Assembly: GCA_027492485.1 (NCBI GenBank)
Contig: JAPUER010000057.1
Span: forward strand, 1-48,658
DNA length: 48,658 nucleotides
DNA from: Betaproteobacteria bacterium
GTDB taxonomy: Bacteria; Pseudomonadota; Gammaproteobacteria; Burkholderiales; Casimicrobiaceae
Direction: 5' to 3'
Each line of letters starts with the position of its first letter. Position 1 is the first letter of the stretch. Both the position numbers and the translations under genes were made by a program. Below, one piece after another: positions 281-47,655 of the stretch. The notes below the pieces were generated by a model. That model ran no database searches, was not told where the DNA came from, and saw only the letters and a list, made by a program, of their open reading frames with translations.

Positions 281-403
281 ATCAGCATTTTTGCTTGAAC
301 GCTTATCCGACAAGGGCGCTGGCGTATATTTTCTTTAAGTCGACATTGGCCGATTTGCGCCTCTGCACCCGATGCAATAGGCGTTTCACCACAAAAGCTG
401 ATC
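281..403. repeat. GTCGAC-centred palindromic element, copy A (full)
   Basis: A 123-bp imperfect palindrome centred on GTCGAC at 339-344. The left end starts ATCAGCATTTTTGC and the right end finishes CACAAAAGCTGATC, so the termini are inverted copies of each other. The right arm (GCAATAGGCGTTTC near 374-387) matches the reverse of the left arm of copy F at 41168-41291. No coding potential. It sits directly after the second terminator unit. Confidence 0.7.
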
Positions 404-462
404 CCTGATTGGCAATGTCGCTCAGCAACGGCGTGGTAGGTGTCGCGCTGGCCGAGTCACGG

Positions 463-632
463 CTCCCTCCCCGCTCGCCGGGGAGGGTTGGGGTGGGGTA
501 CGAAGGCGGCGGTCACTTTCGGGTGACTCTCCGGCGAGACTACCTACCCCCTCCCAGCCTCCCCCGGCAAGCGGGGGAGGAGCGCTCCCCGAACCTTCCG
601 CGCTCGTTTGCTGAGGCAGCTTGCGAATCAGG
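463..632. repeat. Large G/C palindromic intergenic repeat
   Basis: Two long inverted arms (about 463-500 and 541-580), each with its own inner hairpin such as CTCCCCGCTCGCCGGGGAG. The right arm and its tail (558-632) recur at 12026-12099 in the same orientation. Such boxes are common interspersed repeats in high-GC Proteobacteria. With the preceding repeats it accounts for most of the gene-free stretch 1-651. Small open frames here lack homology-like features and I do not call them. Confidence 0.55.
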
Positions 633-651
633 AGCTGATCAATCAGACCCG

Positions 652-1359
652 TTACCGCACCGGCGCCCAGTCGCCGTGGTCGCGCACTTTCCAGACCTTT
701 TCCGCCAGCTTGACGGTGGCAATGCCGCGCTGCCGGCGGCCGTTGAGGTCGGCCTCGAACACCACCAGCGCGGTGCTGCCGTCGACGCTGCCGCCGAGCA
801 CTTTGCAGCGTTGCGGCGCACTGCGGTTGTTGTCGCGGCGCAATGCCCAGTCGCGCTCGACGTATTGCCGCAGCGTCAATGACTGGCCGTTTTGCTGGTT
901 GCGCGCGGCGACTTCTGCCTCGCCGGGCAGCCGTTTTTCGCGCTGCAGCCGGCGGTAATAGGTATTGGCGTCACGATCGATCTCGAAGCCGCGGCAATAG
1001 CCAAGCACGGCGCGGCCCGGCGCACCGCCATCGGCCGGCAGGCGCTTGCCGCGCCGGGCGTAATCGGGCAGATCGACGGGCGCCGCTTCGCGCGGTGATT
1101 CCGGCGTCGCCGGAGGCGGCAGCGACTCGACGGCTGGCGGCGATGCGGCCGGGGGCGCGGGCGGTGGCGGCGGCGCCGGCGCAACTGCTGCCGGCACCAC
1201 GACCGGCGTAACGGGCGTCACCGCTGGCGGCGGCGCGGCGCAGCCGCTCAGCAGCAATGCGGTAGCGGCGACGCAGAGGCCCAACGCGGACAGTCGCGAC
1301 AACGGTCGCCGCCGCCCTTGCGGCGTGGGAGTAGCGATCGGGCGGTGGCCTGGCATCAT
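652..1359 (-). CDS. Proline-rich putative lipoprotein of unknown function
   Basis: 235 residues. An arginine-rich n-region, a hydrophobic stretch and a lipobox LLSGC (Cys40) predict a lipoprotein processed by signal peptidase II. After the Cys comes a Pro/Ala/Val-rich linker (about residues 41-90), probably a spacer away from the membrane. The C-terminal domain (about 100-235) has two cysteines (LGYCRGF and QRCKV) and ends in a beta-rich segment with VWKVRDHG. I do not recognise that domain. Two adjacent ATG codons (1359 and 1356) are possible starts; neither has a clear Shine-Dalgarno sequence. It is transcribed toward the left-edge repeats and looks monocistronic. Confidence 0.65.
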   Translation of the reverse strand: MMPGHRPIATPTPQGRRRPLSRLSALGLCVAATALLLSGCAAPPPAVTPVTPVVVPAAVAPAPPPPPAPPAASPPAVESLPPPATPESPREAAPVDLPDYARRGKRLPADGGAPGRAVLGYCRGFEIDRDANTYYRRLQREKRLPGEAEVAARNQQNGQSLTLRQYVERDWALRRDNNRSAPQRCKVLGGSVDGSTALVVFEADLNGRRQRGIATVKLAEKVWKVRDHGDWAPVR

Positions 1360-1519
1360 CGTCGGCGAGTGGTGAGCGTTGCCTGTATCGCCAAGTATGC
1401 CATCGGCATTGGTTGGCGCACCGATGGCAGCGGCGGACGGCGATCACGATCTGCCATGTTGCAGTCGTCTCGCAAACCTCAAAGCGGGTCGGGATCGCAC
1501 CGGCTCGCGTAACGGACGA

Positions 1520-2206
1520 TCAGGCTTCCAACCGCGCAGTGGCCCTGGAGATCAGTGAACCCTGTGGTACGGACAACGGCTGTAACGGTGCGAAGGCCAC
1601 GCCCCGGGCGTCCTCCTCGTCCAGCCCGAGCGCTCGCAGGAGCGTCAGAACGACCTGCTGCGGATAGTCCTCGGCAACCTCGCCGCTCGTCAAGCGGACG
1701 ATGGCTGCCAGCGCGAAGCCGCTGACCAGATCGAGGGCCACCTCGACCGGAATCTTCACGAAACGGCCGGAGGCGAACCCGGCTTCAAGGTGCGGAGGCA
1801 GGTACTCGTAGATGAGGTTGTTCGGGCTCACCAAGTGGAAAGCGGCGCTCATGACGAAACGCGCGAACAAGGGGAAGTCTCGCGCGCGGTAGAGGTATAG
1901 CCGCACGCCATGGGCGATGCGGGCAGCGGGGTCGTCGTAGCGGCTCACCGCGCCCTCGATGCTTTCCAGCAGTTCGTTGCTCATTTCCTGTGCGACGGCG
2001 GCCAGCAGTTCGTCATTGGTCCTGAAGTAGTTGTAGAAGGTCCCTTGTGAAACTTCCGCGGTAGCAATGACGTCCTGAATGACGCTTGCGCCAACGCCTT
2101 TTTCAGCAAACACGGCCAGGGCGCATTCGACGAGCCGCGCCCGCATCCGTTCCCGCCGCTCTGCGGCAACCCGGGTTCGATGATCGGCGTTTGGCATCTT
2201 GGACAT
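1520..2206 (-). CDS. TetR-family transcriptional regulator of the meta-cleavage operon
   Basis: About 228 residues from the ATG at 2206. The N-terminal helix-turn-helix is typical of TetR proteins (VFAEKGVGASVIQDV followed by VSQGTFYNYF). The rest is a helical ligand-binding domain. The frame stays open to an ATG at 2275, which would add 23 atypical residues, and another ATG lies at 2197; none has a strong ribosome site, so the start is uncertain. It is divergent from the catabolic operon beginning at 2544, and a perfect palindrome at 2491-2516 in the shared region is the likely operator. By family analogy it is probably a repressor released by a pathway intermediate; this is inference. Confidence 0.85.
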   Translation of the reverse strand: MSKMPNADHRTRVAAERRERMRARLVECALAVFAEKGVGASVIQDVIATAEVSQGTFYNYFRTNDELLAAVAQEMSNELLESIEGAVSRYDDPAARIAHGVRLYLYRARDFPLFARFVMSAAFHLVSPNNLIYEYLPPHLEAGFASGRFVKIPVEVALDLVSGFALAAIVRLTSGEVAEDYPQQVVLTLLRALGLDEEDARGVAFAPLQPLSVPQGSLISRATARLEA

Positions 2207-2437
2207 ACGTATTGGCTGGGCTGAAAAGCAAGAAAGGGGAAAGTTCGGCAGTCTATTGAGGATTGCGTAATTCATCGCGTCGCTACGACGCAGCCTGTTG
2301 CCGGCAGGCGGTAATGATCGACTGGCGGTGCTGGCCGCTTCATCACGCTCGATCGCTCATCGCTCGGGTTTCTGCGAGCTGATACCCAACGCCCCGAGCA
2401 TCCGATCAATGTCCTAATCGGATAACGCAGCAGCGCG

Positions 2438-2491
2438 CTATTGGCAGTCATGAAATATGTAATTGTCAATAGGTGAAAACGAGTATATTCT
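2438..2491 (+). promoter_or_regulatory. Candidate promoter and imperfect inverted repeat of the catabolic operon
   Basis: A candidate -35 TTGTCA (2463-2468) lies 17 bases before TATTCT (2486-2491); an overlapping TATATT (2484-2489) is an alternative -10. The -35 lies inside an imperfect inverted repeat, CTATTGGCA (2438-2446) and TGTCAATAG (2464-2472). A smaller repeat, TCCGAT/ATCGGA, lies at 2401-2422. The 337-base gap 2207-2543 holds only these regulatory sites and no gene. Confidence 0.4.
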
Positions 2492-2516
2492 CATAATGAG
2501 ATTTAACTCATTATGA
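2491..2516. promoter_or_regulatory. Perfect palindromic operator, probable TetR site
   Basis: TCATAATGAG (2491-2500), ATTTAA, CTCATTATGA (2507-2516): a perfect 10-bp inverted repeat with a 6-bp spacer. It lies directly downstream of the candidate -10 and 28 bases before the hydrolase start codon. Bound regulator would block transcription initiation. Its AT-rich composition stands out from the G/C-rich flanks. Confidence 0.7.
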
Positions 2517-2543
2517 CGGCTGTCGAGTTATCACCGATTTCAA

Positions 2544-3425
2544 ATGAACGCCAGCCCTCTCTCGAACAACCTCAAGACGCAGACCGTCGGCGTCGCGGGC
2601 AAGGATATCCACTTCGCCGAGGCCGGCTCCGGTAAGGCGCTTGTCCTGCTGCACGGTGGCGGCCCCGGCGCGTCCGGGGCGCCCAACTACGAGCGCAACA
2701 TCGCCGAGCTGGCGCGCCATTTCCGCGTCATCGTGCCGGACATGCCGGGCTACGGCGGCTCGACGAAAGGGCTGGACCGTGCCGACCCGTTCGGCGACTG
2801 TGCCAAGGCGATGCTGGCCTTGCTGGACCATCTGAAAATCCGGCGCACCTGCGTGGTGGGCAATTCACTGGGCGGCGCCTGCGCGCTGCGCATGGCGCTC
2901 GATCACCCGGAGCGGATCGCCGGCCTGGTGCTGATGGGCCCTGGCGGCGTGGACACCACCCGCAGCCTACCCACCAAGGGCCTCAGGCACCTGCTCGACT
3001 ACTACTTGGGGGATGGCCCGACCCGGGACAAACTGCGCACCTTCATCCGGGAGTTCCTCGTCTATGACGGCAGCCAGATTCCCGACAGCGTCATCGAGGC
3101 GCGCTTCCAGGCCAGCATCGACCCGGACGTCGTGGCAAAGCCGCCGCTGGTGCGACCCAAAGGCCTGCCGAAGTTCAAACTGATCGACTTCACGCGCGAT
3201 CCTCGCCTGTCCTCCCTGCAGACACCCGCCCTTGTGCTCTGGGGCGCCGAGGACCTGGTCAACCGGCCCAGCGGCGCGCATTCGCTGCAGCGCAGGATGC
3301 CCAACTGCGACGTCTACCTCTTCAGTCGCACCGGCCATTGGGTGCAGTGGGAGCGGGCTGCGGAATTCAACGCGGCCGTCCTCGCCTTTGCGCGCAAGCA
3401 TCTTGACGCAGGAGAGGCAGCATGA
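2544..3425 (+). CDS. Alpha/beta hydrolase, meta-cleavage product hydrolase (MhpC/BphD type)
   Basis: 293 residues, normal for this family. The oxyanion-hole motif HGGGPGASG (37-45), nucleophile elbow GNSLGG (Ser108), acid in WGAED (Asp237) and His265 in GHWVQWE give a full catalytic triad. These enzymes hydrolyse the C-C bond of 2-hydroxy-6-oxo-dienoates made by extradiol ring cleavage, giving 2-hydroxypenta-2,4-dienoate and a carboxylic acid. It is the first gene of the operon behind the TetR operator. No strong ribosome site precedes ATG 2544. Its stop overlaps the next start (ATGA at 3422). The side chain it accepts cannot be read from the sequence. Confidence 0.88.
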   Translation: MNASPLSNNLKTQTVGVAGKDIHFAEAGSGKALVLLHGGGPGASGAPNYERNIAELARHFRVIVPDMPGYGGSTKGLDRADPFGDCAKAMLALLDHLKIRRTCVVGNSLGGACALRMALDHPERIAGLVLMGPGGVDTTRSLPTKGLRHLLDYYLGDGPTRDKLRTFIREFLVYDGSQIPDSVIEARFQASIDPDVVAKPPLVRPKGLPKFKLIDFTRDPRLSSLQTPALVLWGAEDLVNRPSGAHSLQRRMPNCDVYLFSRTGHWVQWERAAEFNAAVLAFARKHLDAGEAA

Positions 3426-5122
3426 ATGCAAAGCTTCTGGTGGCCGGCGCTGGGCCAGTTGGCATGTGTGCCGCAATCGCGGCGGCGAGCCGCGGTATCG
3501 GCGTGGTGGTCGTGGAGGCTGGTCCAGCCGATCGACCCGCTGACGCCAAGTGCAACACGGTGGCCTCGCGCACGATGGAAACGCTGCGCGGCTTTGGCAT
3601 CGCGGAGCAGGTCCGAGACGCTGGACTGCCTGACGATTTTCCGACCGACGTGGTCTACGCCTCCAGCGTGGCCGGCCCGGAGTTCACGCGCATCGGTCTG
3701 CCGTCGCGCGCCGAGCGCAGGCCGGATCCCTTCCCCAAGGGCTTTCCCGACGCGGGCTGGAGAACTCCCGAGCCCCTCGTGCGCGTAAGCCAGCTCTACC
3801 TCAACCCGATCCTTGCTCGCCGCATGCACGCCACGCCGGGCATCACCGTCCTGCATGACACGGAGGTGCTGGCCTACGAGCAGGACGCCGAGCAGGTCCG
3901 CGTGCAGGTGAAGGACCGCACAGGCGCGTCCCGGACGTTGACCACTCAGTATGTGATCGGCGCCGATGGCGGCCGCAGCGCGATCCGGCATGCGATGGGC
4001 GTACGGCTTCAGGGCGATGCGGAACTGGCCCGCATGCGCTCGACCCTCGTGCGCGCCCCAGGCCTCAAGGCCTTGTTCGATGGACGGAGGCCGGCCTGGA
4101 TGACCTGGATCGCCAACCACAAGGTGCGCGGCGTCGCCGTCGCCATCGACGGTGCCGACACTTGGCTGCTGCACCGCCAGGTGCCTTCGGGCGCGAGTGA
4201 CTTCGCCGCGCTGGACCTGCACGGCTCGATCCGCGACCTGCTGGGCGTGCCGGAGGATTTCCGCTACGAAGTCCTGAACCACGAGGACTGGATCGGCCGC
4301 CGGATGGTGGCCTCGCGCCTGCGGGATGGCCGCGTCTTCCTGGCCGGCGATGCGGCGCACCTGTGGGTGCCCTTTGCAGGCTACGGCATGAACGCAGGCA
4401 TCGCGGACGGCATGAACATCGCCTGGCTGCTGGCCAACGTGCTCGAAGGCTGGGCCCACCCGGCCATGCTCGATGCCTACGAGGCCGAGCGCCACCCCAT
4501 CACCGAGCAGGTCTCGCGGTTCGCAATGCAGAGCATGCTGGACACGATCGACGCAATGGGCGAGAACGCCGTGCCGCCGAGCCTCGCATCGCGCTACAAC
4601 CCGGCGGGCATCGCAATGCGCAAGGTGATCGGGGCCAAACTGCACAAGCTCAACGTGCCCCAGTTCGCGCCCGAGGGGCTGAATTTCGGCTACTACTACG
4701 AAGGCTCGCCCATCATCGCCTACGACAGCGAGAAGGCGCCGCCGTACACCATGGGCAGCGTGACACCAGCGACCGTCCCCGGCTGCCGCATGCCGCACTT
4801 TTGGCTCGCGCCGGGCGATTCGGTGTACGACCGCTTGGGGCCTGGCTACACGCTGCTGCGCTTCGATTCGGCCGTGCCGGTTGAGCCTTTGATGCATGCC
4901 GCGCGTGATGCCCGCATGCCGCTGGTTTTGCTGGACGTACCAGCGCGTCGCGGCGATCCGGCTTTCCGCCATGCCCTGCTGGTCGTGCGGCGCGACCAAC
5001 ATGTCGTCTGGCGTGGCAACGCCATTCCGGCCCTGCCTTCGGATCTGATTGCTAAGCTCTGCGGGCGTGCCGTCGGCACCACCGCCAGCGAACCGCAACC
5101 CCAAGAGAAGGGCGCGGCATGA
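3422..5122 (+). CDS. FAD-dependent aromatic monooxygenase 1
   Basis: 566 residues, group A flavoprotein hydroxylase (PHBH fold, MhpA-like size). The N-terminal nucleotide-binding motif GAGPVG is at 9-14, the GADGGRS motif at 180-186 and the GDAAH FAD-ribityl motif at 309-313. The stretch after GDAAH reads LWVPFAGYGMNAG, less like MhpA than the second monooxygenase of this operon. It should hydroxylate a phenolic ring using NAD(P)H and oxygen to produce a catechol-type substrate. A good Shine-Dalgarno (AGGAGAGG, 3410-3417) precedes ATG 3422, which overlaps the hydrolase stop. The substrate is unknown. Confidence 0.85.
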   Translation: MNAKLLVAGAGPVGMCAAIAAASRGIGVVVVEAGPADRPADAKCNTVASRTMETLRGFGIAEQVRDAGLPDDFPTDVVYASSVAGPEFTRIGLPSRAERRPDPFPKGFPDAGWRTPEPLVRVSQLYLNPILARRMHATPGITVLHDTEVLAYEQDAEQVRVQVKDRTGASRTLTTQYVIGADGGRSAIRHAMGVRLQGDAELARMRSTLVRAPGLKALFDGRRPAWMTWIANHKVRGVAVAIDGADTWLLHRQVPSGASDFAALDLHGSIRDLLGVPEDFRYEVLNHEDWIGRRMVASRLRDGRVFLAGDAAHLWVPFAGYGMNAGIADGMNIAWLLANVLEGWAHPAMLDAYEAERHPITEQVSRFAMQSMLDTIDAMGENAVPPSLASRYNPAGIAMRKVIGAKLHKLNVPQFAPEGLNFGYYYEGSPIIAYDSEKAPPYTMGSVTPATVPGCRMPHFWLAPGDSVYDRLGPGYTLLRFDSAVPVEPLMHAARDARMPLVLLDVPARRGDPAFRHALLVVRRDQHVVWRGNAIPALPSDLIAKLCGRAVGTTASEPQPQEKGAA

Positions 5123-6123
5123 GCGGCAGCCTTTTTGGCCGCATGCGGCTCGGCTACGTGCTCATCGAGTCGCGCCGGCTCGATGCATGGCAGCGCTTCG
5201 CCACGGAAGGCCTGGGGCTTCACGTGGAAGCGGCCAGCGATGGCACTTTGGCCCTGCGCGTTGATGACCGGCAGCGCCGCATCGTCATTCGGCCCGGCCC
5301 GGCCGAGGATGTGGTGGCAACAGGCTGGCAGATGGACGACGATGAAGCGCTCGGCCTTGCCTTGACGCGCCTGCGCGCCCTGGATCTGCGCCCCGAGCGA
5401 CTGCCCAACGTGGAGGCCACGCTGCGAGGAATCAACGAAGGCTGGTACTGCCGTGGGCCCAAGGGCACGCTCATCGAGCTGTTCACCGAGGCATGCGCCC
5501 AGCGAACCGATGCGCCTTTGCGCATGCGCGCCAGCGGATTCGTCACCGGTGCTTCCGGGCTCGGCCACATGGCCATCACCAGTCGCGAGCCCGAAGCGAT
5601 GGAACGCTTCTGGACCGGGGCCTTCGATGCGCGCCTGTCCGACCGCATCGAGGACCGGCTGAGCGGCGTGACCATGGACTTCGCCTTCCTGCGGCTCAAC
5701 GAACGCCACCATTCGATCGCAATCGCCTCGACGCGCGGACTGCGCCTTGATCCGCTGCGCACGAGCATCCACCATCTCAATCTGCAGGCCACCTCGTTCG
5801 ACGACGTGGTGCGGGGCTATCGCCAGTGCCGGGCGCTGGGCTATCCGATCGCCAGCGCCATCGGCCAGCATCCCAACGACAAAGAGCTGTCCTTCTACGT
5901 CCAGTCACCGTCGGATTTCGAGATCGAGCTGGGCTGGAATCCGCTCACCGTGAGCGAGGAAGACGAGCCCACCTGGCAGCCTGGGGCCTATCGGGGCATC
6001 AGCCTGTGGGGCCATTTCCCGGAAAACCTGACCGCAGGCCTGAAAGCCCGGCAGTTCGGCCGCAGCCTGCTCTCGCTGACCCGGCGCGAGATCCAAGGGG
6101 GAGATGCGGGAGATGCGGCATGA
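5119..6123 (+). CDS. Extradiol ring-cleavage dioxygenase (VOC superfamily, BphC/catechol 2,3-dioxygenase type)
   Basis: 334 residues with two vicinal-oxygen-chelate modules: a degenerate N-terminal one (about 10-125) and a catalytic C-terminal one (about 145-280). The iron(II) ligands appear to be His150 (GLGHMAI), His218 or His219 (SIHHLNL) and Glu270 (FEIELGW), matching the His-His-Glu pattern of type I extradiol enzymes. It would open a catechol ring next to a hydroxyl, feeding the hydrolase at 2544. The tail after residue 285 is about 50 residues longer than the core. It is translationally coupled at both ends (ATGA at 5119 and at 6120). Confidence 0.87.
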   Translation: MSGSLFGRMRLGYVLIESRRLDAWQRFATEGLGLHVEAASDGTLALRVDDRQRRIVIRPGPAEDVVATGWQMDDDEALGLALTRLRALDLRPERLPNVEATLRGINEGWYCRGPKGTLIELFTEACAQRTDAPLRMRASGFVTGASGLGHMAITSREPEAMERFWTGAFDARLSDRIEDRLSGVTMDFAFLRLNERHHSIAIASTRGLRLDPLRTSIHHLNLQATSFDDVVRGYRQCRALGYPIASAIGQHPNDKELSFYVQSPSDFEIELGWNPLTVSEEDEPTWQPGAYRGISLWGHFPENLTAGLKARQFGRSLLSLTRREIQGGDAGDAA

Positions 6124-8653: not shown

Positions 8654-8666
8654 AGAGGAGCAAGCA

Positions 8667-9620: not shown

Positions 9621-9628
9621 ACGCAACC

Positions 9629-10645: not shown

Positions 10646-10716
10646 CGTACCACCCCTTGCCTGCACCGCCCGACTGATCGGCCCGAGTCACTCGCCTCCA
10701 ACCTTCGCGTCCATCG

Positions 10717-10735
10717 GAGCCCTCGCGCAGGGCTC
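10717..10735. other. Hairpin between aldolase and outer-membrane channel genes
   Basis: GAGCCCT (10717-10723), CGCGC, AGGGCTC (10729-10735) is a perfect 7-bp stem in the 148-base gap. Only a weak T-rich stretch (GCTTTTCCC) follows, so it may attenuate or process the transcript rather than terminate it fully. Confidence 0.35.
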
Positions 10736-10793
10736 GAGGGCGTGCTTTTCCCTGATTTGCACGAAGCCATCGATAAACCTATAGGAGACAACC

Positions 10794-11894: not shown

Positions 11895-12025
11895 ACGGAT
11901 TCAGTTGCCAGCGGGGCATTCAGCTCCTCTGCGATTCATGTCATGGCGGCCTGAAGAACGCTGCGCCGGCGCCGTCCACGCGGCACCCGCTTTGTCCGCT
12001 TCGCCAGTCCAACAACAGCCCCCAT

Positions 12026-12099
12026 CCTCCCCCGGCAAGTGGGGAGGAGCGCTGCTCGGTCCTGCGGCGATTGGCTGCTGAGCCAGCCTGCGAATAGGG
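12026..12099. repeat. Half copy of the G/C palindromic repeat
   Basis: About 74 bases closely similar to 558-632, both starting CCTCCCCCGGCAAG and both containing GGGGAGGAGCGCT, then TGCTGAG and TGCGAAT. Same orientation as the left copy. The two copies bracket the lipoprotein gene and the whole aromatic locus. The rest of the gap 11895-12147 contains only the half element described next. Confidence 0.55.
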
Positions 12100-12100
12100 T

Positions 12101-12165
12101 GTCGACATTGGCCGATTCGCGCCTCTATGCGGCGTGCAATGGGCGTTTCACCTAAAAAGCTGATC
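12101..12165. repeat. GTCGAC palindromic element, copy B (right half only)
   Basis: Starts at the GTCGAC core (12101-12106) and ends AAAAAGCTGATC (12154-12165). It is nearly identical to the right arm of copy A (GGGCGTTTCACC shared). The left arm is missing and the G/C repeat abuts the core instead. Its last 18 bases overlap the 3' end of the PAS-GGDEF-EAL gene, so they encode that protein's C-terminal residues and stop. Confidence 0.65.
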
Positions 12166-23815: not shown

Positions 23816-23885
23816 GGGCAGCATGCTAATACGCGATCACCAGACGGCATTGACCGCCGGCAAGTCGGGCGCGTTCCGGATGCAA

Positions 23886-24004
23886 CATCTTTTTGCTCAA
23901 AGCCCCAATCAATATGGGCTACCACCGCGAAAACGCAAATAGTCGACTTTTGCGCTTTAAAGCCGTAAGCCCTTATCCAATCGGCGTTGGCACGAAAAGC
24001 TGAT
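23886..24004. repeat. GTCGAC palindromic element, copy C (full)
   Basis: About 119 bp centred on GTCGAC at 23942-23947, from CATCTTTTTGC to CGAAAAGCTGAT. The two arms match each other well: read outward from the core both give a TTGCG-like start, then GTAGCCC/GTAAGCCC, then AT and a GG(C/G)G word. The right end lies one base before the gltD stop codon (24006-24008). It fills most of the gap between gltD and the retropepsin-like gene. Confidence 0.7.
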
Positions 24005-24005
24005 A

Positions 24006-38019: not shown

Positions 38020-38245
38020 TGAGAGTTTAGGCCACTTTTGTCGCCTGAAACTTTAAGTTGAGTGAGGAGTGTTGCATAAGGCTCGCGCCGTGGCAAGACG
38101 TGCCCCGGATTTGCCGGCCTATAATCGGCGAAAAAAACAACATTGGCATAACCAGTAGTCTTGCGGCGGCGACCTCGCGGCTTGGCTGGCACGATCAGCC
38201 AGAATACGGACAAGTTCTAAGCCTCCGGGGGAATAAGGGACGTCA
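38020..38245. promoter_or_regulatory. Divergent pilM/mrcA promoter region
   Basis: A perfect -10 hexamer TATAAT lies at 38120-38125 on the plus strand, probably serving mrcA; no good -35 is visible at the right distance. AAGGGA (38235-38240) is the mrcA ribosome site. The pilM promoter should be in the same gap but I cannot place it. No gene is present. Confidence 0.35.
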
Positions 38246-40609: not shown

Positions 40610-40646
40610 GCGAACGCTGCCCCGCACCCCCTGAGGCCCAGCCGCC

Positions 40647-41210
40647 ATGGCCCACGAACGCGCCACGCTGGCGGCGGTCGCCGCCCGCATCATCGTCGAA
40701 TCCGAACTGACCGACTGGGCGCTGGCGCGGCGCAAGGCGGCGGCCGAGTTGGGGCTGGCCGCGCGCGGTACGCCGCAGCCGTCGGACGCCGAAATCATCG
40801 CCGAAATCCAGACCTGGCAGGCGCTGTACGGCGGCGCCGAGTGGCTGGCGCAACTGCGGGCGCAGCGCGAATACGCGCTGGAGGCGATGCAGGCGTTGCT
40901 GCGATTTCATCCGGTGCTGGTCGGCCCGGTGGCGGAAGGCTGGGCACACGCCGGCAGCGAAATCCGCATCGAACTGACGCCGGACAATCCGAAAGAAATC
41001 GAGTACGCGCTGATCGACCTCGACGTCGAGTTCACGCCGCTGCTCAGCCGCGACGGCGGCGCGCAGTACGAAATCGTCGATGGCGACTGGCCGCTGCGGC
41101 TGGTGGTGCGCGAAGCCGGCCGGGCGCCTGACCCGCGCCACCGGCACCGCTTGAGCGGCCCGCAATTGCAACAGCTTATTGCCGAAACGCCTATTGATAA
41201 AGGCGAATAG
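40647..41210 (+). CDS. Conserved protein, nucleotidyltransferase-like family of unknown function
   Basis: 187 residues. The N-terminal helical part (ARIIVESELTDWALARRKAAAELGL), the AEI..EIQTWQALYGG segment and the central RFHPVLVGPV..G strand match a conserved proteobacterial family that I associate with a nucleotidyltransferase-like fold. I cannot confirm catalytic residues. It lies 37 bases after mrcA. The last residues (about ETPIDKGE) and the TAG stop are encoded inside palindromic element F, so the natural C-terminus appears to have been replaced or extended. Confidence 0.7.
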   Translation: MAHERATLAAVAARIIVESELTDWALARRKAAAELGLAARGTPQPSDAEIIAEIQTWQALYGGAEWLAQLRAQREYALEAMQALLRFHPVLVGPVAEGWAHAGSEIRIELTPDNPKEIEYALIDLDVEFTPLLSRDGGAQYEIVDGDWPLRLVVREAGRAPDPRHRHRLSGPQLQQLIAETPIDKGE

Positions 41211-41291
41211 CGCATTTTCCTTGAATGTCGACTCTCGCAATAATTGGCGTATATCCCTTACAAACAAACGCTTGCAACCAAAAAGCCGATC
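41168..41291. repeat. GTCGAC palindromic element, copy F (full)
   Basis: About 124 bp centred on GTCGAC at 41227-41232. The right end is AAAAAGCCGATC; the left part, read in reverse, gives CAATAGGCGTTTC as in copy A. Its left 43 bases overlap the end of the gene at 40647. The rest of the gap to 41432 includes GTTACAAA at 41333-41340, shared with the upstream region of the second Spy-like gene. Confidence 0.7.
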
Positions 41292-41432
41292 ACCGGCGAT
41301 CGCGAACCGGACAAAACGCCAGGCAACAAATCGTTACAAACGAAAGCGGCCGTCCACCGCTTGTTTTGCCGCGACCCGAGTCCATGTAGCGAGCAAACGC
41401 CGCCCCGGCGTTCCTCCTCAAGGAATCGAAAC

Positions 41433-41861
41433 ATGAAAAAGATCGTGAAATCCGCCCTCATCGCGTCCACGCTGATCGCGGCGGGCGCCAGTCTCGCGCA
41501 CGACGGCCCGATGGGCGGCGACGGCATGCACAAAGGCATGGGCCCGATGGGCCAGGGCATAGGCATGCAGCGGCAGCCGGTCGACATCGCCAAACTGCTG
41601 AATCTTGACAGCGCCCGCGCCGACAAGGTCAACGCCATCCTCGCCGACGAACGCAAGGAGCGCCAGGCGCTGTGGGAATCGCGCAAAACTGCCGGCCACG
41701 ACGATGCCAGCAAGCAGGCGTTCCGCGACAAGATGATCGCGCTGCGCGACGCCACCAAAACCAAGCTGACCGCGGTGCTGACGGCCGACGAGTTGCAGAA
41801 GCTGCGCGACGCCACCGCCGGCCAGCGTATGCATCGCGGCATGCACGCGCCGCAGTCGTAG
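41433..41861 (+). CDS. Spy/CpxP-like periplasmic protein 1
   Basis: 142 residues from ATG 41433 (AAGGA at 41420-41424). Signal peptide (KKIVKSALIASTLIAAGASLAH). A Met/Gly/His-rich stretch (GPMGGDGMHKGMGPMGQG) follows, which could bind copper or other metals. The rest is helical with the LTADELQKL motif of the LTXXQ family. Such proteins are periplasmic chaperones or stress sensors. The C-terminus again has Met and His (QRMHRGMHA). Paralogous to the next gene. Confidence 0.75.
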   Translation: MKKIVKSALIASTLIAAGASLAHDGPMGGDGMHKGMGPMGQGIGMQRQPVDIAKLLNLDSARADKVNAILADERKERQALWESRKTAGHDDASKQAFRDKMIALRDATKTKLTAVLTADELQKLRDATAGQRMHRGMHAPQS

Positions 41862-41911
41862 ACCGAAGGCGGCGAGCACCAGCACGGCTTAACTAAGCCC
41901 GCAGTCGCCAG

Positions 41912-41947
41912 AAACCCCGGTTGCCCGCGCGGCGCCGGGGTTTTTTG
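41912..41947 (+). terminator. Intrinsic terminator after Spy-like gene 1
   Basis: AAACCCCGG (41912-41920) pairs with CCGGGGTTT (41935-41943), and the T-run continues to 41946. The loop is G/C-rich. It separates the two tandem Spy-like genes, so each has its own promoter. Confidence 0.8.
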
Positions 41948-42135
41948 TTGCCGCTGCCGGCACCGCGTTGCGCGACAACATTTGCTTACAAAGCAGTCGT
42001 GCGATTCGCGGCTATTTTCCGTCGCCGCGCGTTCAAATACTTACCAAGCCGATAGCGTTGCGCCTGCTCACCGACCGCCAGCGCTTTGTTTCATCAAGAC
42101 AACGTGTTCAACGAACGAACGAAAGAGAGACCGCA

Positions 42136-42510
42136 ATGAAACTGCTCAAGACCTCCCTGATCGCCGCGGCGCTGCTGGCCACCGGCGCTGCTTTCGCGCA
42201 ACCGGCCGCGGGCCTGCACCAGCCCGGCGAGCGCATCGTCAAATTCCTCAACCTTGACGCCACCCGTGCCGCGCAGGTGACGGCCATCATGACCGACGCG
42301 CAGACGCAACGCCGCGCCGTGTTCGAATCGATGAAAGGCAAGCGTGGCGACCCGGCGGCCCGCGAAGCGGCGCATGCGCAGATGAAGGCGATCGGTGACG
42401 GCACCCGCGCCCAGCTCGCGCAGGTGCTGACGGCGGACGAACAGGCCAAACTGAAAGAAGCCCGCAAGGCCATGCGCCACCACGGCTTCGGCCCCGGCCC
42501 GCGCGGTTAG
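42136..42510 (+). CDS. Spy/CpxP-like periplasmic protein 2
   Basis: 124 residues from ATG 42136. Signal peptide (LKTSLIAAALLATGAAFAQ), a helical body with FLNLDATRAAQVTAIM and LTADEQAKLKEARKAM, both shared with gene 1. It lacks the Met/Gly/His-rich stretch of gene 1, and the tail is HHGFGPGPRG. An upstream TTACAAA (41986-41992) in a similar setting to that before gene 1 suggests common regulation. Role inferred only from family. Confidence 0.75.
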   Translation: MKLLKTSLIAAALLATGAAFAQPAAGLHQPGERIVKFLNLDATRAAQVTAIMTDAQTQRRAVFESMKGKRGDPAAREAAHAQMKAIGDGTRAQLAQVLTADEQAKLKEARKAMRHHGFGPGPRG

Positions 42511-42522
42511 CGCCGTCGCAGC

Positions 42523-42681
42523 ATCGTGGCCGACTCGCGGCCACGATCGATTAAACCAGCCGCTAGGCGCAGGTCAACTCCTGGCAAAGCGTGCATCGAA
42601 CGTGGATGCACGCGAGTCCGGCGCCAACTGCAGCGCCGACGTCAATCCCTCCGCGCACCAGCCGTGCTAAGGATGCACGGC
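42523..42681. other. Hairpin-rich gap between Spy-like gene 2 and the anchor C protein
   Basis: The 311-base gap 42511-42821 has no gene. It contains a 10-bp stem ATCGTGGCCG/CGGCCACGAT (42523-42547), a 9-bp stem GCGTGCATC/GATGCACGC (42589-42613) and a 7-bp stem GCCGTGC/GCACGGC (42661-42681). The word GGATGCACG occurs at 42604 and again at 42671. The first hairpin may end the Spy-like transcript; the others could be operator sites. GGAGG near 42808 is the ribosome site of the next gene. Confidence 0.45.
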
Positions 42682-42821
42682 GCCGCGTCATCGGCAAAGT
42701 CCGCGCTCAACCGACTCCGTTGCAGGCTCAGCAGAAGGCCGCTGGACGGTGAGGAAGCGCTTGCGCCGCGCGGTAGCCTGCTGGACAATTCGAAGGTTCA
42801 CAAAACCGGAGGTCGGGGGCG

Positions 42822-43478
42822 ATGGTCAGTCGAGTCAACTCATTTCTGGCGCTTGCAGTCTGCGCCACGCTGGCGGCGGCGGCGGGCGCTGCGCCGTTTC
42901 AGAATGGCAGCTTCGAAACCGGAACCTTGACCAACACCGGTACGTTTGACACGCTGGCGCCGGGCTCCACCGCGATCACTGGCTGGACGGTGATCGGCGA
43001 TGGCGTCGACTACATCGGCGGCACCTGGACGGCGGCTGCCGGTGCCCGTTCGATCGATACCCTCTCTTGTGGCATCAGCGGCGGCGTCAGCCAGACTTTC
43101 GACACCGTGGCGGGCGGCACTTACGTGGTCAGCATTGCGCTGGCCGGCAACCCGGACGGCGGCGTCAAGACGCTGGCGGCCTCGGCGGCTGGCACCACGG
43201 CGAATTTCACCTTCAACACTGTAGGCCGCAGCGCCTCCAGCATGGGCTGGACCACTGCCAGCTTCGCCTTTGTGACCAACAGCACCACCACCACGCTGTC
43301 GCTGCTTGGCGGCGTGCAGGGCGGCAGCAGCAGTTGTGCCGGTGCGGCGATTGACAACGTGACGGTGACCCAGGTCGCCGGGCCGTCGTCGGTGCCGGTT
43401 GGTGGCGGGCTTGGCGCTGCCGTCGCGCTGGCGGCTGCCGCGTGGCTCGGCTTGCGTCGCCGCCAGCGGCAGGGCTGA
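42822..43478 (+). CDS. Choice-of-anchor C family secreted protein with C-terminal sorting-like tail
   Basis: 218 residues. Signal peptide (to about AAAGAAP). The body matches the choice-of-anchor C / DUF642-like pattern: NGSFETG, APGSTAITGWTVIGDGVDYIGG and GGVSQTFDTVAGGTYVVS with AGNPDGG. The C-terminus has a Gly/Pro-containing VPVGGGLG followed by a hydrophobic segment and RRRQRQ, the layout of PEP-CTERM/IPTL-CTERM sorting signals but without the usual PEP or IPTL word. It is likely surface-anchored through an exosortase- or rhombosortase-like system that is not in the window. Confidence 0.75.
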   Translation: MVSRVNSFLALAVCATLAAAAGAAPFQNGSFETGTLTNTGTFDTLAPGSTAITGWTVIGDGVDYIGGTWTAAAGARSIDTLSCGISGGVSQTFDTVAGGTYVVSIALAGNPDGGVKTLAASAAGTTANFTFNTVGRSASSMGWTTASFAFVTNSTTTTLSLLGGVQGGSSSCAGAAIDNVTVTQVAGPSSVPVGGGLGAAVALAAAAWLGLRRRQRQG

Positions 43479-43536
43479 GTCGCGTCTCGCCAGGCGCTGC
43501 GCTGGCGGTGAACGACCGCACCGTCCAAGCGGGTCG

Positions 43537-43661
43537 TTGCAGCTTTTTGATGGAAGCCCCATTTCATGGGGCCGAACGGCTGCTTTTGCGCTTTGTCGAC
43601 TATTGACGATTCGGGCCTTGAGCCCTGATTCAGCCTTGATTTCAACGACGAGCCAATGATC
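43537..43661. repeat. GTCGAC palindromic element, copy D (full)
   Basis: About 125 bp centred on GTCGAC at 43595-43600. The left end reads GCAGCTTTTTGATGG, and a perfect GCCCCAT/ATGGGGC hairpin (43556-43562, 43566-43572) occupies the left arm. The right end is diverged (CGAGCCAATGATC). It lies between two convergent genes, 25 bases from the stop of the delta-60 repeat gene. Confidence 0.65.
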
Positions 43662-43685
43662 TCGTCTGGCTGCCGTTCCGTTCGC

Positions 43686-45530
43686 TCAGGGCAGGCAGTC
43701 GGCGCCGTGCGTTGACGTGATCCAGCTGCGAATTTGTGCGGCAGTGCGGGCGTTGGGATGCCCGGTGTTGACCGCGCCCGTGCTGAGGCCGACATCGCTG
43801 GCGCCGGCGAGCGCTCGCAGCAGCAGCAGGCCATCGGTGGCGGCCCGCGCGACGCCATCGCCATCGGCGTCGAGGTCGAGTCCGGCCAGCCAGCTTTCCA
43901 GCGCCGTGCCAGTACGCTGCGGGTTCGCGCCCAACGCGCCGGCCGTGAGCGCCGCGCCGCGCAGACCCAGCAGATAGCGCACGATCAGCACGCCGTCGGT
44001 TGCCGCGTCGAGCAGCAGATTGCCGTCCACGTTCAGCGCGCAGGTGGGTGCCGCGACCGGCCCGCCCTCGAAGCGCGCGGCGCAAAACACCTCCGGCGCA
44101 CCGCGAAAACAACTGCCCGCCGCCACGATCTTGCCGTCCGCTTGCAGCAATGCCGCATTCACCAGGTCGCGCTGATTGGCGATGGCCGGCGCCAGCGCTT
44201 TGCCGCCGCTGCCGAACGACGCGTCGAGACTGCCGTCGCTCGCCAGCCGCGCAAGGCAGAGCACGCCGGTGCCGGTGGCCTGGTCGGCGTTGCAGCGGCC
44301 GACCAGCAGCAGCTTGCCGTCCGCCTGCCGCAGCAGCGCGTTGGCGCCATCGTAGCCGCTGCCCATGTCGATCTGCACCATGCCGCGCCCGGCGGCTAGC
44401 GCGCTGGCGTTGAAACCGGCGCTGTCGAGCGTGCCGTCGGCGAGGTAGCGTACGGCGCAGAAACGCGTCACGCCGTTGTTGGAGAACACCCAGCCGGTCG
44501 CACAGGCGCCCGCGGCAACGATGCTGCCGTTCGGCTGCACGGCCAGCGCCATCAGCGCGTCCTCGCCGTCCGCCACCGACGTGATTCGCTTGCCGCCGGC
44601 ATCGCTGGCAAAACCGGTGTCGAGCGTGCCGTCCGCGTGGAGCCGCATCAGGCAGAAATCGTTGGCGAGCCTGGCATAGCAGCCGCCGCCGAGCAGCAGC
44701 TTGCCGTCCGCCTGCAGCGCGATCGCCGTCGCCTCGGCGCCACTGCCGTCACCGATCGGCTCGACGCGGGTGCCGGGGCGCGGGCCGCCGGCGTTGAAGC
44801 TGGTGTCCAGCGTGCCGTTGGCGTGATGGCGGCTGACGCACATGGCGCGGTCGATGATCGAGGTGCCGCAGCCGCCCGCGACCACGATCTTGCCGTCGCC
44901 CTGCAACACGACGTCGCGCGCCGTGTTGAAGAAGTTGCCCGGCGCCACCATGGCCAGCCCCGGCACCGCGCCGCCGGCGTTGAAGGTGATGTCTTCGTCG
45001 CCATTGGGCAGCAGGCGCACGATGCAGAAATCGTTGAAACCGCTGGTCGGATCGCCACAAGTGCCTGCCAGCACGATCTTGCCGTCCGGCTGTAGCGCCA
45101 CGCGGCCGTCGTACCACTGCGTCGTTACGATCTGCACCACCTTTTCGCCGGGCTCGAAGAAGCTGCCCTGCGTTGCCGCATTCGGGTTGAAGCTGGTGTC
45201 GGGCGTGCCGTCGGCGTTGAAGCGCGCCACACACGGCCGCCGCGTCAGCAGCAGGTCGCAGGAGCCGGCGATGAGCAGCTTGCCGTCGGGCTGCCGCGCC
45301 ACGCCGGCGCCGGTGTCGTTGGCGCTGGTGGTGACGCCAAGCCGCGCGGTCACCTTGCCGCGATTGCCGACGACCGGGTCGGCCGCGTTGAAGCCGGCGA
45401 CGTCGAGGTCGCCCGGCGCGGCAACGGCGCGGGCCGCCAGCGTCAGATGGGCAAGCAGCAGGGCCCAAGGCCGCCACGGCGACCGTCGCAGATGCAGTGC
45501 TCCGGTGCGCCCGGTCGCGTTTGTTGCCAT
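43686..45530 (-). CDS. Secreted delta-60 repeat protein with dockerin-like C-terminus (paralogue 1)
   Basis: 614 residues from ATG 45530 (AAGGG seven bases upstream; the longer open frame from 45650 is less likely). Signal peptide ends about AVAAPG. Seven delta-60 units follow, each with a DGKxxxAGxC start and, 8-20 residues later, a second Cys before R-F/L, then GxxDxSF; the paired Cys suggests one disulfide per unit. Seven units could form a beta-propeller. The C-terminal 115 residues hold two dockerin-like calcium loops (ALNVDGN and DLDADGDG, each followed by a TDG-hydrophobic helix) and end THGADCLP. Function unknown. Confidence 0.8.
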   Translation of the reverse strand: MATNATGRTGALHLRRSPWRPWALLLAHLTLAARAVAAPGDLDVAGFNAADPVVGNRGKVTARLGVTTSANDTGAGVARQPDGKLLIAGSCDLLLTRRPCVARFNADGTPDTSFNPNAATQGSFFEPGEKVVQIVTTQWYDGRVALQPDGKIVLAGTCGDPTSGFNDFCIVRLLPNGDEDITFNAGGAVPGLAMVAPGNFFNTARDVVLQGDGKIVVAGGCGTSIIDRAMCVSRHHANGTLDTSFNAGGPRPGTRVEPIGDGSGAEATAIALQADGKLLLGGGCYARLANDFCLMRLHADGTLDTGFASDAGGKRITSVADGEDALMALAVQPNGSIVAAGACATGWVFSNNGVTRFCAVRYLADGTLDSAGFNASALAAGRGMVQIDMGSGYDGANALLRQADGKLLLVGRCNADQATGTGVLCLARLASDGSLDASFGSGGKALAPAIANQRDLVNAALLQADGKIVAAGSCFRGAPEVFCAARFEGGPVAAPTCALNVDGNLLLDAATDGVLIVRYLLGLRGAALTAGALGANPQRTGTALESWLAGLDLDADGDGVARAATDGLLLLRALAGASDVGLSTGAVNTGHPNARTAAQIRSWITSTHGADCLP

Positions 45531-45626
45531 TGTCAGCCCTTCCCGATGTCGCCCGCCATGCGTCGTCCGCGGCGCGGCTATCGCGATTACGAATTGCGCC
45601 CGCCGCGGCGGACATCGGCGCGATAT

Positions 45627-45748
45627 ACAGCTTTGCACGGAAAGCGCCATTGAATAAGGGCTAACAGGCCTAAATGGCCATTAGTCGACTTGCAGCATTT
45701 TCGGGCCGTAGCCCAGTATTTTTGGGCGTTTTGTCCAAGAGGTGTTTG
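45627..45748. repeat. GTCGAC palindromic element, copy E (full)
   Basis: About 122 bp centred on GTCGAC at 45685-45690. The left arm (GCGCCATTGAATAAGGGCTAA) matches the reverse of the right arm of copy C, and its right arm (CGGGCCGTAGCCCAGTAT) matches the reverse of C's left arm, so E lies opposite to C. It ends about 5 bases before the stop codon of paralogue 2 (45753-45755). Confidence 0.68.
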
Positions 45749-45752
45749 CCGT

Positions 45753-47486
45753 TCAAGGCAAACAGGCCACGCCGTGCGTCGATTCGATCCAGCTGAGGAT
45801 TTGCTGCGCATTGCGCGCATTCGGATGCGCCGTGTTCACCACACCCGCCGTCAACGCGTCGCCAGTCAGCCCCAGCATCGCGCGCAGGATCAGCAGCCCA
45901 TCGGTCGTGGCGAGCGACTGGCCGTCGCCGTCGGCGTCGAGATCAAGCGAGGCGAGGTAGGTTTCGAGGGCTTGGCCGGTGCGGGTCGCGTTTTGTCCAA
46001 GTGCGTCGTCGGTTAGCGCATTACCGCGATAGCCGAGCAGGTAGCGGGCTAAAAGCAGGGCGTCAGTGCTGGGGGTAATAGTGTCGCTGGCGTCGGCGTT
46101 CAGGGCACAGGTTAAGGGGCTGTAGGGGCCGCCTTTAAGGCGCACCAGGCAGCCGAAAGACTGGGAATTGGTCTCATCATTGCAAGTCCCTGCTAGCAAT
46201 ACTTTGCCGTCGTCCGCCGTGTTGCCGAGACTAAAAAAATCCAGTCCGCGGGCGAAGTCGATGCGGACTTTGCCGTTTTCGCCAAACGTCGAGTCAAGCG
46301 ACCCATTCGCATTGAGACGAATCAAGCAAACATCAAAGAAAATCCTTGAAGCCCCAACGCATTGACTGGACAAGACAATTCTTCCAGATGATTCGACGTA
46401 GATTCCATTTGCGTGCTCGCTGCCCGAGACGTCATAAACAATTGTCGCTCCACCAGTTCCGAAGGCCGCATCTAGCGTGCCGTTCCCGTGCAACTTGCTG
46501 ACGCACACGTCTGCTTGCGCTCCGTCTTGGCACGCTACTGCCATCAATATGGAGCCGTCAGTCTGTACCGCCAGATCCCGTACGCCCGACGACGATACCG
46601 CTGGCATGCTCGCAACAGCCCCCAGATTCACGATCAGCGAACCACTTCCATTGAACGTCGGATCGAGACTCCCGTCTGCGTCATATCGCGCGACGCAAGT
46701 TGTCGGCGGTGACAGCCCGGAATAGCAATAACCACCTACAACTAGCTTTCCATCAGCCTGCACCGTAGCAGCCTCAGCGTAAGTGCCGCCGGAGTCAATG
46801 GCGGCGACCAATTCGGTTTGGACAACGCCGTTGACACCAAAACTGACGTCTATCGTGCCATTCGACTGGTATTTCACGAGACAAAACTTGGTAGTCGATG
46901 TCGGCGTTCTGCATTGGCCTACGGCAATCACCCCGCCCATGGGTGCGATCAACAAATGCGTTAGTTGTTCGACACCACCGAGGTTAGTCACGACCGTTCC
47001 TCCACTGTTGAACGATGTATCCAGACCTCCGTTTGCGAGAAATCGAGCGATGCAGAAATGAAACAGCCCGCCATTGACACAACTACCACCTACAGTGATG
47101 CGGCCAATCGAATCGACGACCAACGCCCCCGCTGCATGATTCTGTGAACTCAAAGATACGGTTGCGATGCCGCCGGAGCCAAAACTGAAATCCATTTCTC
47201 CGCTAGCAGAGAACTTGGCCGCACAAAATCTCGTCTCCGCTCCTATGCTGCAGGCGCCGACCGCAACGATGCTTCCGCTTGGTAAACGAACCGTTTTATA
47301 AAACCCCGTGTTGCCCGTTCCCGTTTCGACGCGCACTTTGCCATCCTGCCCAAACGTCGGATCAAGCTGCCCCGGCGCGGCGGCTATAGCGCCGCAGAAA
47401 AAAATGCTAAGCAGCGCGTAAATCGCCGCAGATGGCTGCTTTCGGCACAACGTGAGCAGTCGAGAATAGCGGGAAACTGCAAACAT
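45753..47486 (-). CDS. Secreted delta-60 repeat protein with dockerin-like C-terminus (paralogue 2)
   Basis: 577 residues. Signal peptide ends about AIAAAPG. Again seven units with the GxC...C-x-x-(R/K) pattern, though less regular (SSQC in unit 6). The C-terminal 115 residues align closely with paralogue 1: CALNADASDT, YLLGYRG, DLDADGDG, TDGLLILRAM, HPNARNAQQI and THGVACLP. The unit region is markedly less G/C-rich than paralogue 1, for example around 46170-47320, suggesting a different history. No ribosome site is visible before ATG 47486. Likely surface or secreted; function unknown. Confidence 0.8.
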   Translation of the reverse strand: MFAVSRYSRLLTLCRKQPSAAIYALLSIFFCGAIAAAPGQLDPTFGQDGKVRVETGTGNTGFYKTVRLPSGSIVAVGACSIGAETRFCAAKFSASGEMDFSFGSGGIATVSLSSQNHAAGALVVDSIGRITVGGSCVNGGLFHFCIARFLANGGLDTSFNSGGTVVTNLGGVEQLTHLLIAPMGGVIAVGQCRTPTSTTKFCLVKYQSNGTIDVSFGVNGVVQTELVAAIDSGGTYAEAATVQADGKLVVGGYCYSGLSPPTTCVARYDADGSLDPTFNGSGSLIVNLGAVASMPAVSSSGVRDLAVQTDGSILMAVACQDGAQADVCVSKLHGNGTLDAAFGTGGATIVYDVSGSEHANGIYVESSGRIVLSSQCVGASRIFFDVCLIRLNANGSLDSTFGENGKVRIDFARGLDFFSLGNTADDGKVLLAGTCNDETNSQSFGCLVRLKGGPYSPLTCALNADASDTITPSTDALLLARYLLGYRGNALTDDALGQNATRTGQALETYLASLDLDADGDGQSLATTDGLLILRAMLGLTGDALTAGVVNTAHPNARNAQQILSWIESTHGVACLP

Positions 47487-47532
47487 TGTGGTGGCGGGCG
47501 GGGAATAGCTGCTGGAAGTCAGTAATGATAAG

Positions 47533-47655
47533 GATCAGCCATTTCTATACAGGCCTTGTTTTACTTGGGCTACAGGCCTGAAATACGTAAAGTCGACTGG
47601 AGGTTGTAATTGTGGCGAGTCCAGATGAAATGGGGGCTAGCTACAAAAGCCGATC
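47533..47655. repeat. GTCGAC palindromic element, copy G (full)
   Basis: 123 bp centred on GTCGAC at 47592-47597, starting GATCAGCC and ending AAAAGCCGATC. It lies in the 385-base gap 47487-47871 upstream of delta-60 paralogue 2. The gap has no gene; it also carries a C-rich stretch (about 47745-47775) and the sucD terminator. Confidence 0.7.

What the first reader, a model, noticed from the sequence alone, without database searches (positions are those of the whole stretch)
281..47655. An interspersed ~122-bp palindromic element family centred on GTCGAC
Six full copies (A 281-403, C 23886-24004, D 43537-43661, E 45627-45748, F 41168-41291, G 47533-47655) and a half copy (B 12101-12165) share a GTCGAC core and termini like GATCAGCTTTT. 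Core-to-end distances are consistently about 60 bases on each side. Each arm also tends to contain an inner GCC...GGC hairpin, best seen in D. Copies align to each other in either orientation (C to reversed E, A right arm to reversed F left arm). They are too diverged to be recent copies, yet the architecture is kept. I do not recognise this as a named REP, BIME or MITE. It could be a mobile non-autonomous palindrome or a structured RNA/terminator element.
Basis: partly seen in the sequence, partly recalled or inferred. Interest (0 to 1): 0.75.

Follow-up and report, generated by a model that had tools for sequence, protein, structure and literature searches.

The report
Evenly spaced 122-bp palindromic chromosome sites
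A little-studied sludge bacterium carries hundreds of 122-base mirror-symmetric DNA sites, mostly just after genes and spaced more evenly than chance, which look more like docking sites for a protein that manages the chromosome than like jumping DNA.

Summary
The repeat family is real: gapless 58+6+58 bp dyads around GTCGAC with sharp ends. The window holds six full copies and one half copy; the genome holds about 320 (extrapolated from 31 in 400 kb). Reversed-sequence controls gave no hit. Copies are not recent duplicates (best pair 69%, mean 49% of 83). Arm-to-arm and inner-hairpin pairing show no clear covariation. Arms do not differ overall with transcription direction. Some positions are nearly fixed, many nearly random. 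Sites are intergenic, mostly within 100 bp of a stop codon. A pattern test shows clear excess in 10 of 17 genomes of the genus and in none of 23 outside it. At least three relatives share another inner 'dialect'. Spacing is more even than chance: 70 sites in 860 kb of a complete relative, mean 12.2 kb, CV 0.54 against 0.94 for random gene ends; own genome and a third genome agree more weakly. I read them as protein-bound DNA sites for chromosome or supercoil organisation; DNA gyrase, whose E. coli motif is a symmetric 130-bp pattern, is the leading but unproven candidate. Half copy B abuts a second, mobile-looking GC-rich repeat that favours these sites.

The parts
281..402 (.). Element A, full 122-bp dyad, core 339-344
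12101..12164 (.). Half element B: core plus right arm only; left side abuts a second GC-rich repeat
23884..24005 (.). Element C, core 23942-23947
41169..41290 (.). Element F, core 41227-41232, at the 3' end of the gene that follows the PBP1A gene; elements at the same place in four relatives (G005, G001, G015, G006; cores vary)
43537..43658 (.). Element D, core 43595-43600, between convergent genes
45626..45747 (.). Element E, core 45684-45689, between tandem DUF5122 genes
47534..47655 (.). Element G, core 47592-47597
404..633 (.). Second family ('type 2'), MITE-like GC-rich repeat directly at the right end of element A; AGCTGATC occurs on both sides (read from the letters)
12021..12100 (.). 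Partial type 2 copy (BLAST match 12021-12095) abutting the core of half element B

Best explanation
Each element is a DNA-level recognition site, 122 bp long and symmetric about GTCGAC, bound by a two-fold symmetric protein complex that contacts both arms and probably wraps the DNA. About 320 sites per genome sit mostly just downstream of genes, where transcription piles up positive supercoils, at intervals of roughly 12 kb that are more even than chance, so their job is most likely to organise the chromosome's topology: supercoil removal or domain boundaries. DNA gyrase is the leading candidate binder: in E. coli its motif is a symmetric 130-bp pattern about a 4-bp staggered cut, with ~10-bp phased GC/AT arms, and it acts downstream of transcription units. 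Shown here: site architecture, copy number, position, lack of a recent-copy signal, lack of clear hairpin covariation, even spacing, shared dialects. Inferred: protein binding, wrapping, the topological role, and gyrase as the protein.
For: Sharp 122-bp footprint, a few near-fixed positions among near-random ones, few indels: 66 of 73 profile hits in a G005 block have no net length change, 7 differ by one base. About 38 bits per arm plus half core, so ~76 per element, against ~14 bits (my arithmetic) needed to mark 320 places in 4.1 Mb. Arm match 0.456 within against 0.443 between elements, 287 of 5000 shuffles reach it; inner pairs about as expected. No overall arm difference with transcription direction in 79 tandem elements (Wilcoxon P 0.69). 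Position: no core inside a called gene in 57 own and 70 G005 elements; nearest stop codon within 100 bp for 47 of 57 and 49 of 70; own gaps of 100 bp or more that hold a site: convergent 15 of 30, tandem 34 of 119, divergent 3 of 43. Even spacing: G005 70 sites in 860 kb, CV 0.543 against null 0.935 +- 0.107, 0 of 4000 draws as low, 0 intervals under 3 kb against 13.4; own 43 intervals, CV 0.718 against 0.931, P 0.017; G012 24 intervals, CV 0.66 against 0.88, P 0.048. GC profile along the arm peaks at a 9.5-bp period in G005 (P 0.0025) and G012 (P 0.009). Inner motif GCCC..GGGC in own and G005 but CGACC..GGTCG in G012, G008 and G003. Gyrase features from passages of PMC6379681 and PMC12393610.
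Against: No binding data exist and no binder was found. Gyrase recognises DNA largely through bendability and its E. coli motif is very degenerate, whereas these sites are sequence-specific and their inner motif differs between species of one genus. In the own genome the strongest GC period is 8 bp (P 0.0015), with 9.5-10 second, and the own and G005 profiles are nearly the same (r 0.97), so the periodicity support is modest. In G005 11 of 70 sites fall in gaps called divergent: by gap of 100 bp or more, convergent 14 of 39, tandem 45 of 219, divergent 11 of 100 (crude gene caller). Own genome has 5 of 43 intervals under 3 kb, three of them in this window, and counts per 20 kb in L160-L179 are not significantly even (P 0.19). 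Six of 58 arm columns differ with transcription direction at P<0.05, about twice chance. GyrA and HU/IHF searches showed no difference between genomes with and without sites among the 12 genus members examined. Elements fold more stably as RNA than shuffles (mean z -2.67, 30 of 42 below -2), as near-palindromes would.
Confidence: 0.42

Rival explanations
1. A dedicated, fast-evolving DNA-binding protein other than gyrase (a nucleoid protein, insulator or roadblock) binds the symmetric sites at gene ends and stops polymerases from both sides or separates neighbouring units.
For: A shared change of the inner motif across a genome's sites is what coevolution with a changing protein would give; symmetry suits convergent genes; sites show clear excess only within one genus.
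Against: No candidate protein identified, and no systematic search for one was possible; a pure terminator or insulator would not need even ~12-kb spacing.
Confidence: 0.28
2. An old non-autonomous mobile palindrome (MITE or REPIN-like), now inactive, with spacing produced by insertion immunity.
For: Interspersed, palindromic, intergenic, sharp ends; immunity could give a lack of close neighbours; Y1-type transposase genes occur in the genus; 4 of 10 syntenic places lack a full element.
Against: No pair above 69% among 83; decay is very uneven across positions; element present at orthologous places; the one own Y1 gene in fetched DNA (in L037) lies ~2.5 kb from the nearest full element, and genomes without excess sites also carry Y1 genes.
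Confidence: 0.12
3. A bidirectional transcription terminator or mRNA 3'-end stabiliser acting as folded RNA.
For: Position just after stop codons; folds more stably than shuffles; some right arms read like ordinary terminators; the inner dyad stays roughly palindromic in both dialects.
Against: No clear arm or inner-hairpin covariation within a genome; no overall direction asymmetry; no U-tract after a hairpin in the consensus (my reading); spacing not a random draw of gene ends.
Confidence: 0.1
4. A DNA uptake sequence maintained by biased uptake, as in Neisseria or Haemophilus (recalled, not looked up), with species dialects and even spread.
For: Dialects, hundreds of non-copied sites at gene ends, even spacing.
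Against: Uptake sequences are short (recalled); a rigid 122-bp symmetric footprint is not expected. Competence genes not tested.
Confidence: 0.04

Closest known systems
DNA gyrase binding motif and strong gyrase sites (Mu SGS, BIME-2)
   Same: Symmetric ~130-bp footprint about a cleavage dyad, phased GC/AT arms, gyrase enriched downstream of transcription units (passages of PMC6379681, PMC12393610, PMC11626157)
   Different: E. coli motif is degenerate, and its downstream enrichment is described there as apparently not hard-wired; here sites are sequence-specific, mostly at gene ends and evenly spaced. Binding by gyrase is untested
REP / REPIN with RAYT transposase
   Same: Hundreds of intergenic inverted pairs, lineage-specific sequence
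   Different: No near-invariant 16-mer copies, no clear compensatory changes, no linked RAYT seen in the one case checked, even rather than random spread (compare passages of PMC3116915)
ERIC / intergenic repeat unit (recalled)
   Same: About 127 bp, imperfect palindrome, intergenic
   Different: ERIC sequence was not compared by any search here; different host group
Bidirectional intrinsic terminators
   Same: At gene 3' ends, between convergent genes
   Different: No clear conserved pairing and no U-tract in the consensus; even spacing

Membership tests
REP / REPIN | Highly similar copies with a near-invariant 16-mer | tested here: not met
   Best pair 69%, mean 49% of 83 elements
REP / REPIN | Hairpin kept by compensatory changes | tested here: not met
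   Within-element arm match 0.456 vs 0.443 between (287 of 5000 shuffles reach it); inner pairs about as expected
REP / REPIN | Linked RAYT (Y1_Tnp) gene | tested here: inconclusive
   3 Y1_Tnp matches in own genome; one lies in fetched DNA, ~2.5 kb from the nearest full element; the other two not examined; Y1_Tnp also in genomes without excess sites
MITE | Target-site duplication and clean empty sites | tested here: inconclusive
   4 of 10 syntenic places lack a full element; only one of the four was examined and shows an element split by a gene
MITE | Recent near-identical copies | tested here: not met
   83 own elements, best pair 69%; about a fifth of the genome was scanned
Intrinsic terminator | Conserved stem followed by U-tract, strand-specific | tested here: not met
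   No clear covariation; no overall direction asymmetry in 79 tandem elements
Rfam RNA families | Match above gathering score | tested here: not met
   0 matches in the window
Strong gyrase site | Symmetric ~130-bp footprint | tested here: met
   122 bp, sharp bounds, symmetric consensus; footprint inferred from sequence only
Strong gyrase site | ~10.75-bp phased GC content in the arms | tested here: inconclusive
   Best period 9.5 bp in G005 (P 0.0025) and G012 (P 0.009), but 8.0 bp in own (P 0.0015); phase against the E. coli motif not compared
Strong gyrase site | Binding and cleavage by gyrase | not testable with these tools
   Needs Topo-Seq or an in vitro assay

The most novel reading that the evidence does not exclude
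The chromosome of this clade is punctuated by a hard-wired, evenly spaced array of ~320 long dyad sites that set its supercoiling domains, one about every 12 kb at gene ends, and whose sequence dialect changes genome-wide together with its binding protein.
Probability: 0.35. Interest if true: 0.92.

Novelty: categorically new. Interest (0 to 1): 0.77.

Why it matters
How bacterial chromosomes keep topological domains of about 10 kb (figure recalled) is an old question, and in E. [quoted passage not shown] A clade in which such sites are hard-wired, countable and evenly spaced would make domain placement and protein-site coevolution directly testable. If gyrase proves to be the binder, the class becomes a new variant of strong gyrase sites rather than a new kind.

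Tried and rejected
Rfam: nothing in the window. RNAalifold on 13 arms: no consensus structure. RAYT link: not supported in the one case checked. Extra gyrase-type C-terminal domains or HU/IHF copies in site-bearing genomes: none evident among genus members G000-G011 (6 blades in 11 of 12, 7 in G004 where one lies on a contig end; 2 or 3 HU/IHF matches in each). Literature: the listings showed no description of this element; only open-licence PMC papers are held, so this does not show it is unpublished. I saw passages only of PMC6379681, PMC12393610, PMC11626157 and PMC3116915, and listing lines or abstract starts of the others. That G005 may be Casimicrobium huifangae is a guess from its single 4,465,898-bp contig, not from a call.

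Corrections made on checking: the GC-period claim was narrowed (own genome peaks at 8 bp, not 9.5-10), and I lowered the best explanation from 0.45 to 0.42 and raised the non-gyrase protein rival to 0.28 for that reason. One search was run to check the G003 dialect and stop-codon distances.

The 3-kb cut-off for short intervals was chosen after seeing the G005 block and applied unchanged. The null treats the 11 divergent-gap sites as tandem draws. In one search four of 88 listed places were dropped because their printed letters lacked element-like arms; with all 88 kept there are 3 short intervals against 11.5 expected. Of the 15 one-arm places, L166 6931 looks like a full element below threshold and L187 1041 like a shifted reading of a neighbouring element.
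Full report
Observation. The seven copies are real and share one rigid design: 58 bp, a 6-bp core, 58 bp. A sequence-only model built from the 13 arms recovers those arms and nothing else in the window and hits the 150-match scoring cap in the own genome. A matrix scan of 849 kb finds 83 full elements scoring 25 or more and none on reversed sequence. Part of that 849 kb was chosen because it held hits. In 20 stretches not chosen for hits there are 31 elements in 400 kb, so about 320 per 4.12-Mb genome by extrapolation; 20 spread stretches of G005 hold 28 in 400 kb.

Not recent copies. Among 83 elements the best pair is 69% identical and the mean is 49%. Positions differ sharply: TTT at -51 to -49, A at -41, GG at -25/-24 and the core are near fixed, while others carry almost no information. 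Information ends abruptly at -58. A profile that allows indels refinds the 70 gapless elements of the G005 block plus 3 halves; 66 of 73 hits have no net length change and 7 differ by one base.

Not a conserved hairpin. If the palindrome worked as RNA or a cruciform, the two arms of one element should match each other better than arms of different elements. They barely do: 0.456 against 0.443 (287 of 5000 shuffles reach it) in own, 0.454 against 0.444 (1037 of 5000) in 28 G005 elements. Inner stem pairs occur about as often as base composition predicts. Against this reading, the elements fold more stably than dinucleotide shuffles (mean z -2.67, 30 of 42 below -2), which near-palindromes tend to do, and the inner dyad stays roughly palindromic when the dialect changes. 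Splitting arms of 79 tandem elements by transcription direction shows no overall difference (P 0.69), but 6 of 58 columns are below 0.05 and one below 0.01, about twice chance.

Where they sit. With a simple codon-based gene caller, no core of 57 own elements lies inside a gene; 17 convergent, 35 tandem, 3 divergent, 2 at edges. In G005: 45 tandem, 14 convergent, 11 divergent of 70. In G012: 16 tandem, 6 convergent, 4 divergent of 26. The nearest stop codon facing the element is at a median of 26 bp in own (47 of 57 within 100 bp) and 50.5 bp in G005 (49 of 70). The bias towards 3' ends is clear in own and weaker in G005: gaps of 100 bp or more holding a site are convergent 15 of 30, tandem 34 of 119, divergent 3 of 43 in own (partly hit-chosen stretches), and 14 of 39, 45 of 219, 11 of 100 in G005. 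The caller is crude and some divergent cases may be missed genes.

Even spacing. In 860 contiguous kb of G005 there are 70 elements, mean spacing 12.16 kb, CV 0.543; random draws from eligible 3'-end gaps give 0.935 +- 0.107 and none of 4000 is as low; no interval is under 3 kb where 13.4 are expected. Three intervals are long (26, 37 and 44 kb). Counts per 20 kb in 17 other G005 stretches are under-dispersed (variance/mean 0.36, P 0.010). A thinned set of 84 pattern hits elsewhere in G005 has 1 interval under 3 kb against 10.5 expected under uniform placement (P 0.0002), while its CV of 0.85 is not significant (P 0.07). Own genome: 43 intervals in six blocks, CV 0.718 against 0.931 (P 0.017), 5 under 3 kb against 10.2 (P 0.025); without the window, 38 intervals, 2 against 8.5. 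Counts in L160-L179 alone are not significant (P 0.19), and over all own stretches, including hit-chosen ones, 7 of 45 intervals are under 3 kb. G012: CV 0.66 against 0.88 (P 0.048), 0 of 24 under 3 kb against 3.9. So evenness is strong in G005 and moderate elsewhere, and this window's last four elements, about 2 kb apart, are an exception.

Distribution and dialects. The pattern CTTT-N-TCGA-N-AAAG is in clear excess over its backward control in 10 of 17 genomes of the genus (85-270 against 1-21); the other seven (G002, G007, G009, G010, G011, G014, G016) show 8-30 against 3-33, and none of 23 genomes outside the genus shows clear excess (largest differences 20 against 12 and 11 against 5). 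The stricter pattern agrees over 60 genomes, with small imbalances such as 11 against 4 and 6 against 0 outside the genus. The own-trained model matches 14 of 30 genomes, all in the genus, some with only 1-4 matches. Three site-rich genomes (G003, G008, G012) give only 3, 1 and 4 such matches because their inner motif is mostly CGACC..GGTCG instead of GCCC..GGGC, with the same ends, core and spacing: seen in 26 scanned G012 elements, the printed G008 and G012 places and five G003 loci. At the PBP1A locus an element stands at the same place in own, G005, G001, G015 and G006, with cores GTCGAC, GTCAAC or GTTAAC; G004 gave no model hit there. L061, whose contig has the same length as G012:C9, shows the other dialect there. 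Over 10 syntenic places 6 keep a full element; those six pairs are 42-75% identical while their flanks are 73-93%. The nearest named relatives by PBP1A are Burkholderiales and other betaproteobacterial MAGs, with a Casimicrobiaceae record further off.

Half copies and a second repeat. In 849 kb of own and 400 kb of G005, 15 places match one arm only; at least two of these are probably not true halves. In L032 two halves flank a 192-bp insert with GTCGRC on both sides. A GC-rich 'type 2' repeat occurs at 7 places in the own blocks; by coordinates 5 of them abut an element end or core, including window 404-633 beside A and 12021-12095 beside B. In G005 a 200-aa gene, lipoprotein-like by my reading of its start, lies between two halves of one element. 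The core thus looks like a favoured breakpoint, which would suit a site of enzymatic cutting but does not prove it.

Mechanism. An element recognised as DNA by a symmetric complex explains symmetry without arm covariation, rigid spacing, near-fixed contacts, lack of direction and shared dialects. Even spacing points to a chromosome-scale job. Gyrase fits the footprint, the dyad and the gene-end position; the E. coli motif is a symmetric 130-bp pattern with 10.75-bp phased arms, and cleavage sites are enriched downstream of transcription units (passages of PMC6379681; PMC12393610). Our GC profile has its best period at 9.5 bp in G005 (P 0.0025) and G012 (P 0.009) but at 8 bp in own (P 0.0015), where 9.5-10 is second, so this support is modest. 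Against gyrase: strong base specificity, species dialects, and an ordinary GyrA C-terminal domain in genomes with and without sites. I hold the DNA-site and chromosome role as more likely than the rivals, and gyrase itself at about one in four.

Novelty. No named family that I tested fits. The information per element (about 76 bits) far exceeds the ~14 bits needed to mark 320 places, so more than one contact or protein is likely, or shared ancestry still shows in part; I cannot separate these.

Noticed in passing
window 404-633; window 12021-12095: GC-rich ~230-bp MITE-like repeat with ends like CCTGATTGGCA..TGCGAATCAGG, found at ends or cores of the 122-bp elements; by coordinates 5 of 7 places in the own blocks abut one.
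   Followed up: partly
window 60-110 and 226-276: Two 51-bp stretches, 98% identical, each with a hairpin and T-run like an ordinary terminator, 166 bp apart near the contig end.
   Followed up: no
L198 6156-7027 (G005): A 200-aa lipoprotein-like gene sits between two halves of one element, as if inserted at the core.
   Followed up: partly
L163 4430 and L168 901: Half elements whose missing arm is replaced by another repeat with CCTTCGCTTYGCTCAGGATGAC-like letters.
   Followed up: no
window 43686-47486: Two neighbouring DUF5122 beta-propeller genes flanked by closely spaced elements (about 2 kb apart), an exception to the even spacing.
   Followed up: no
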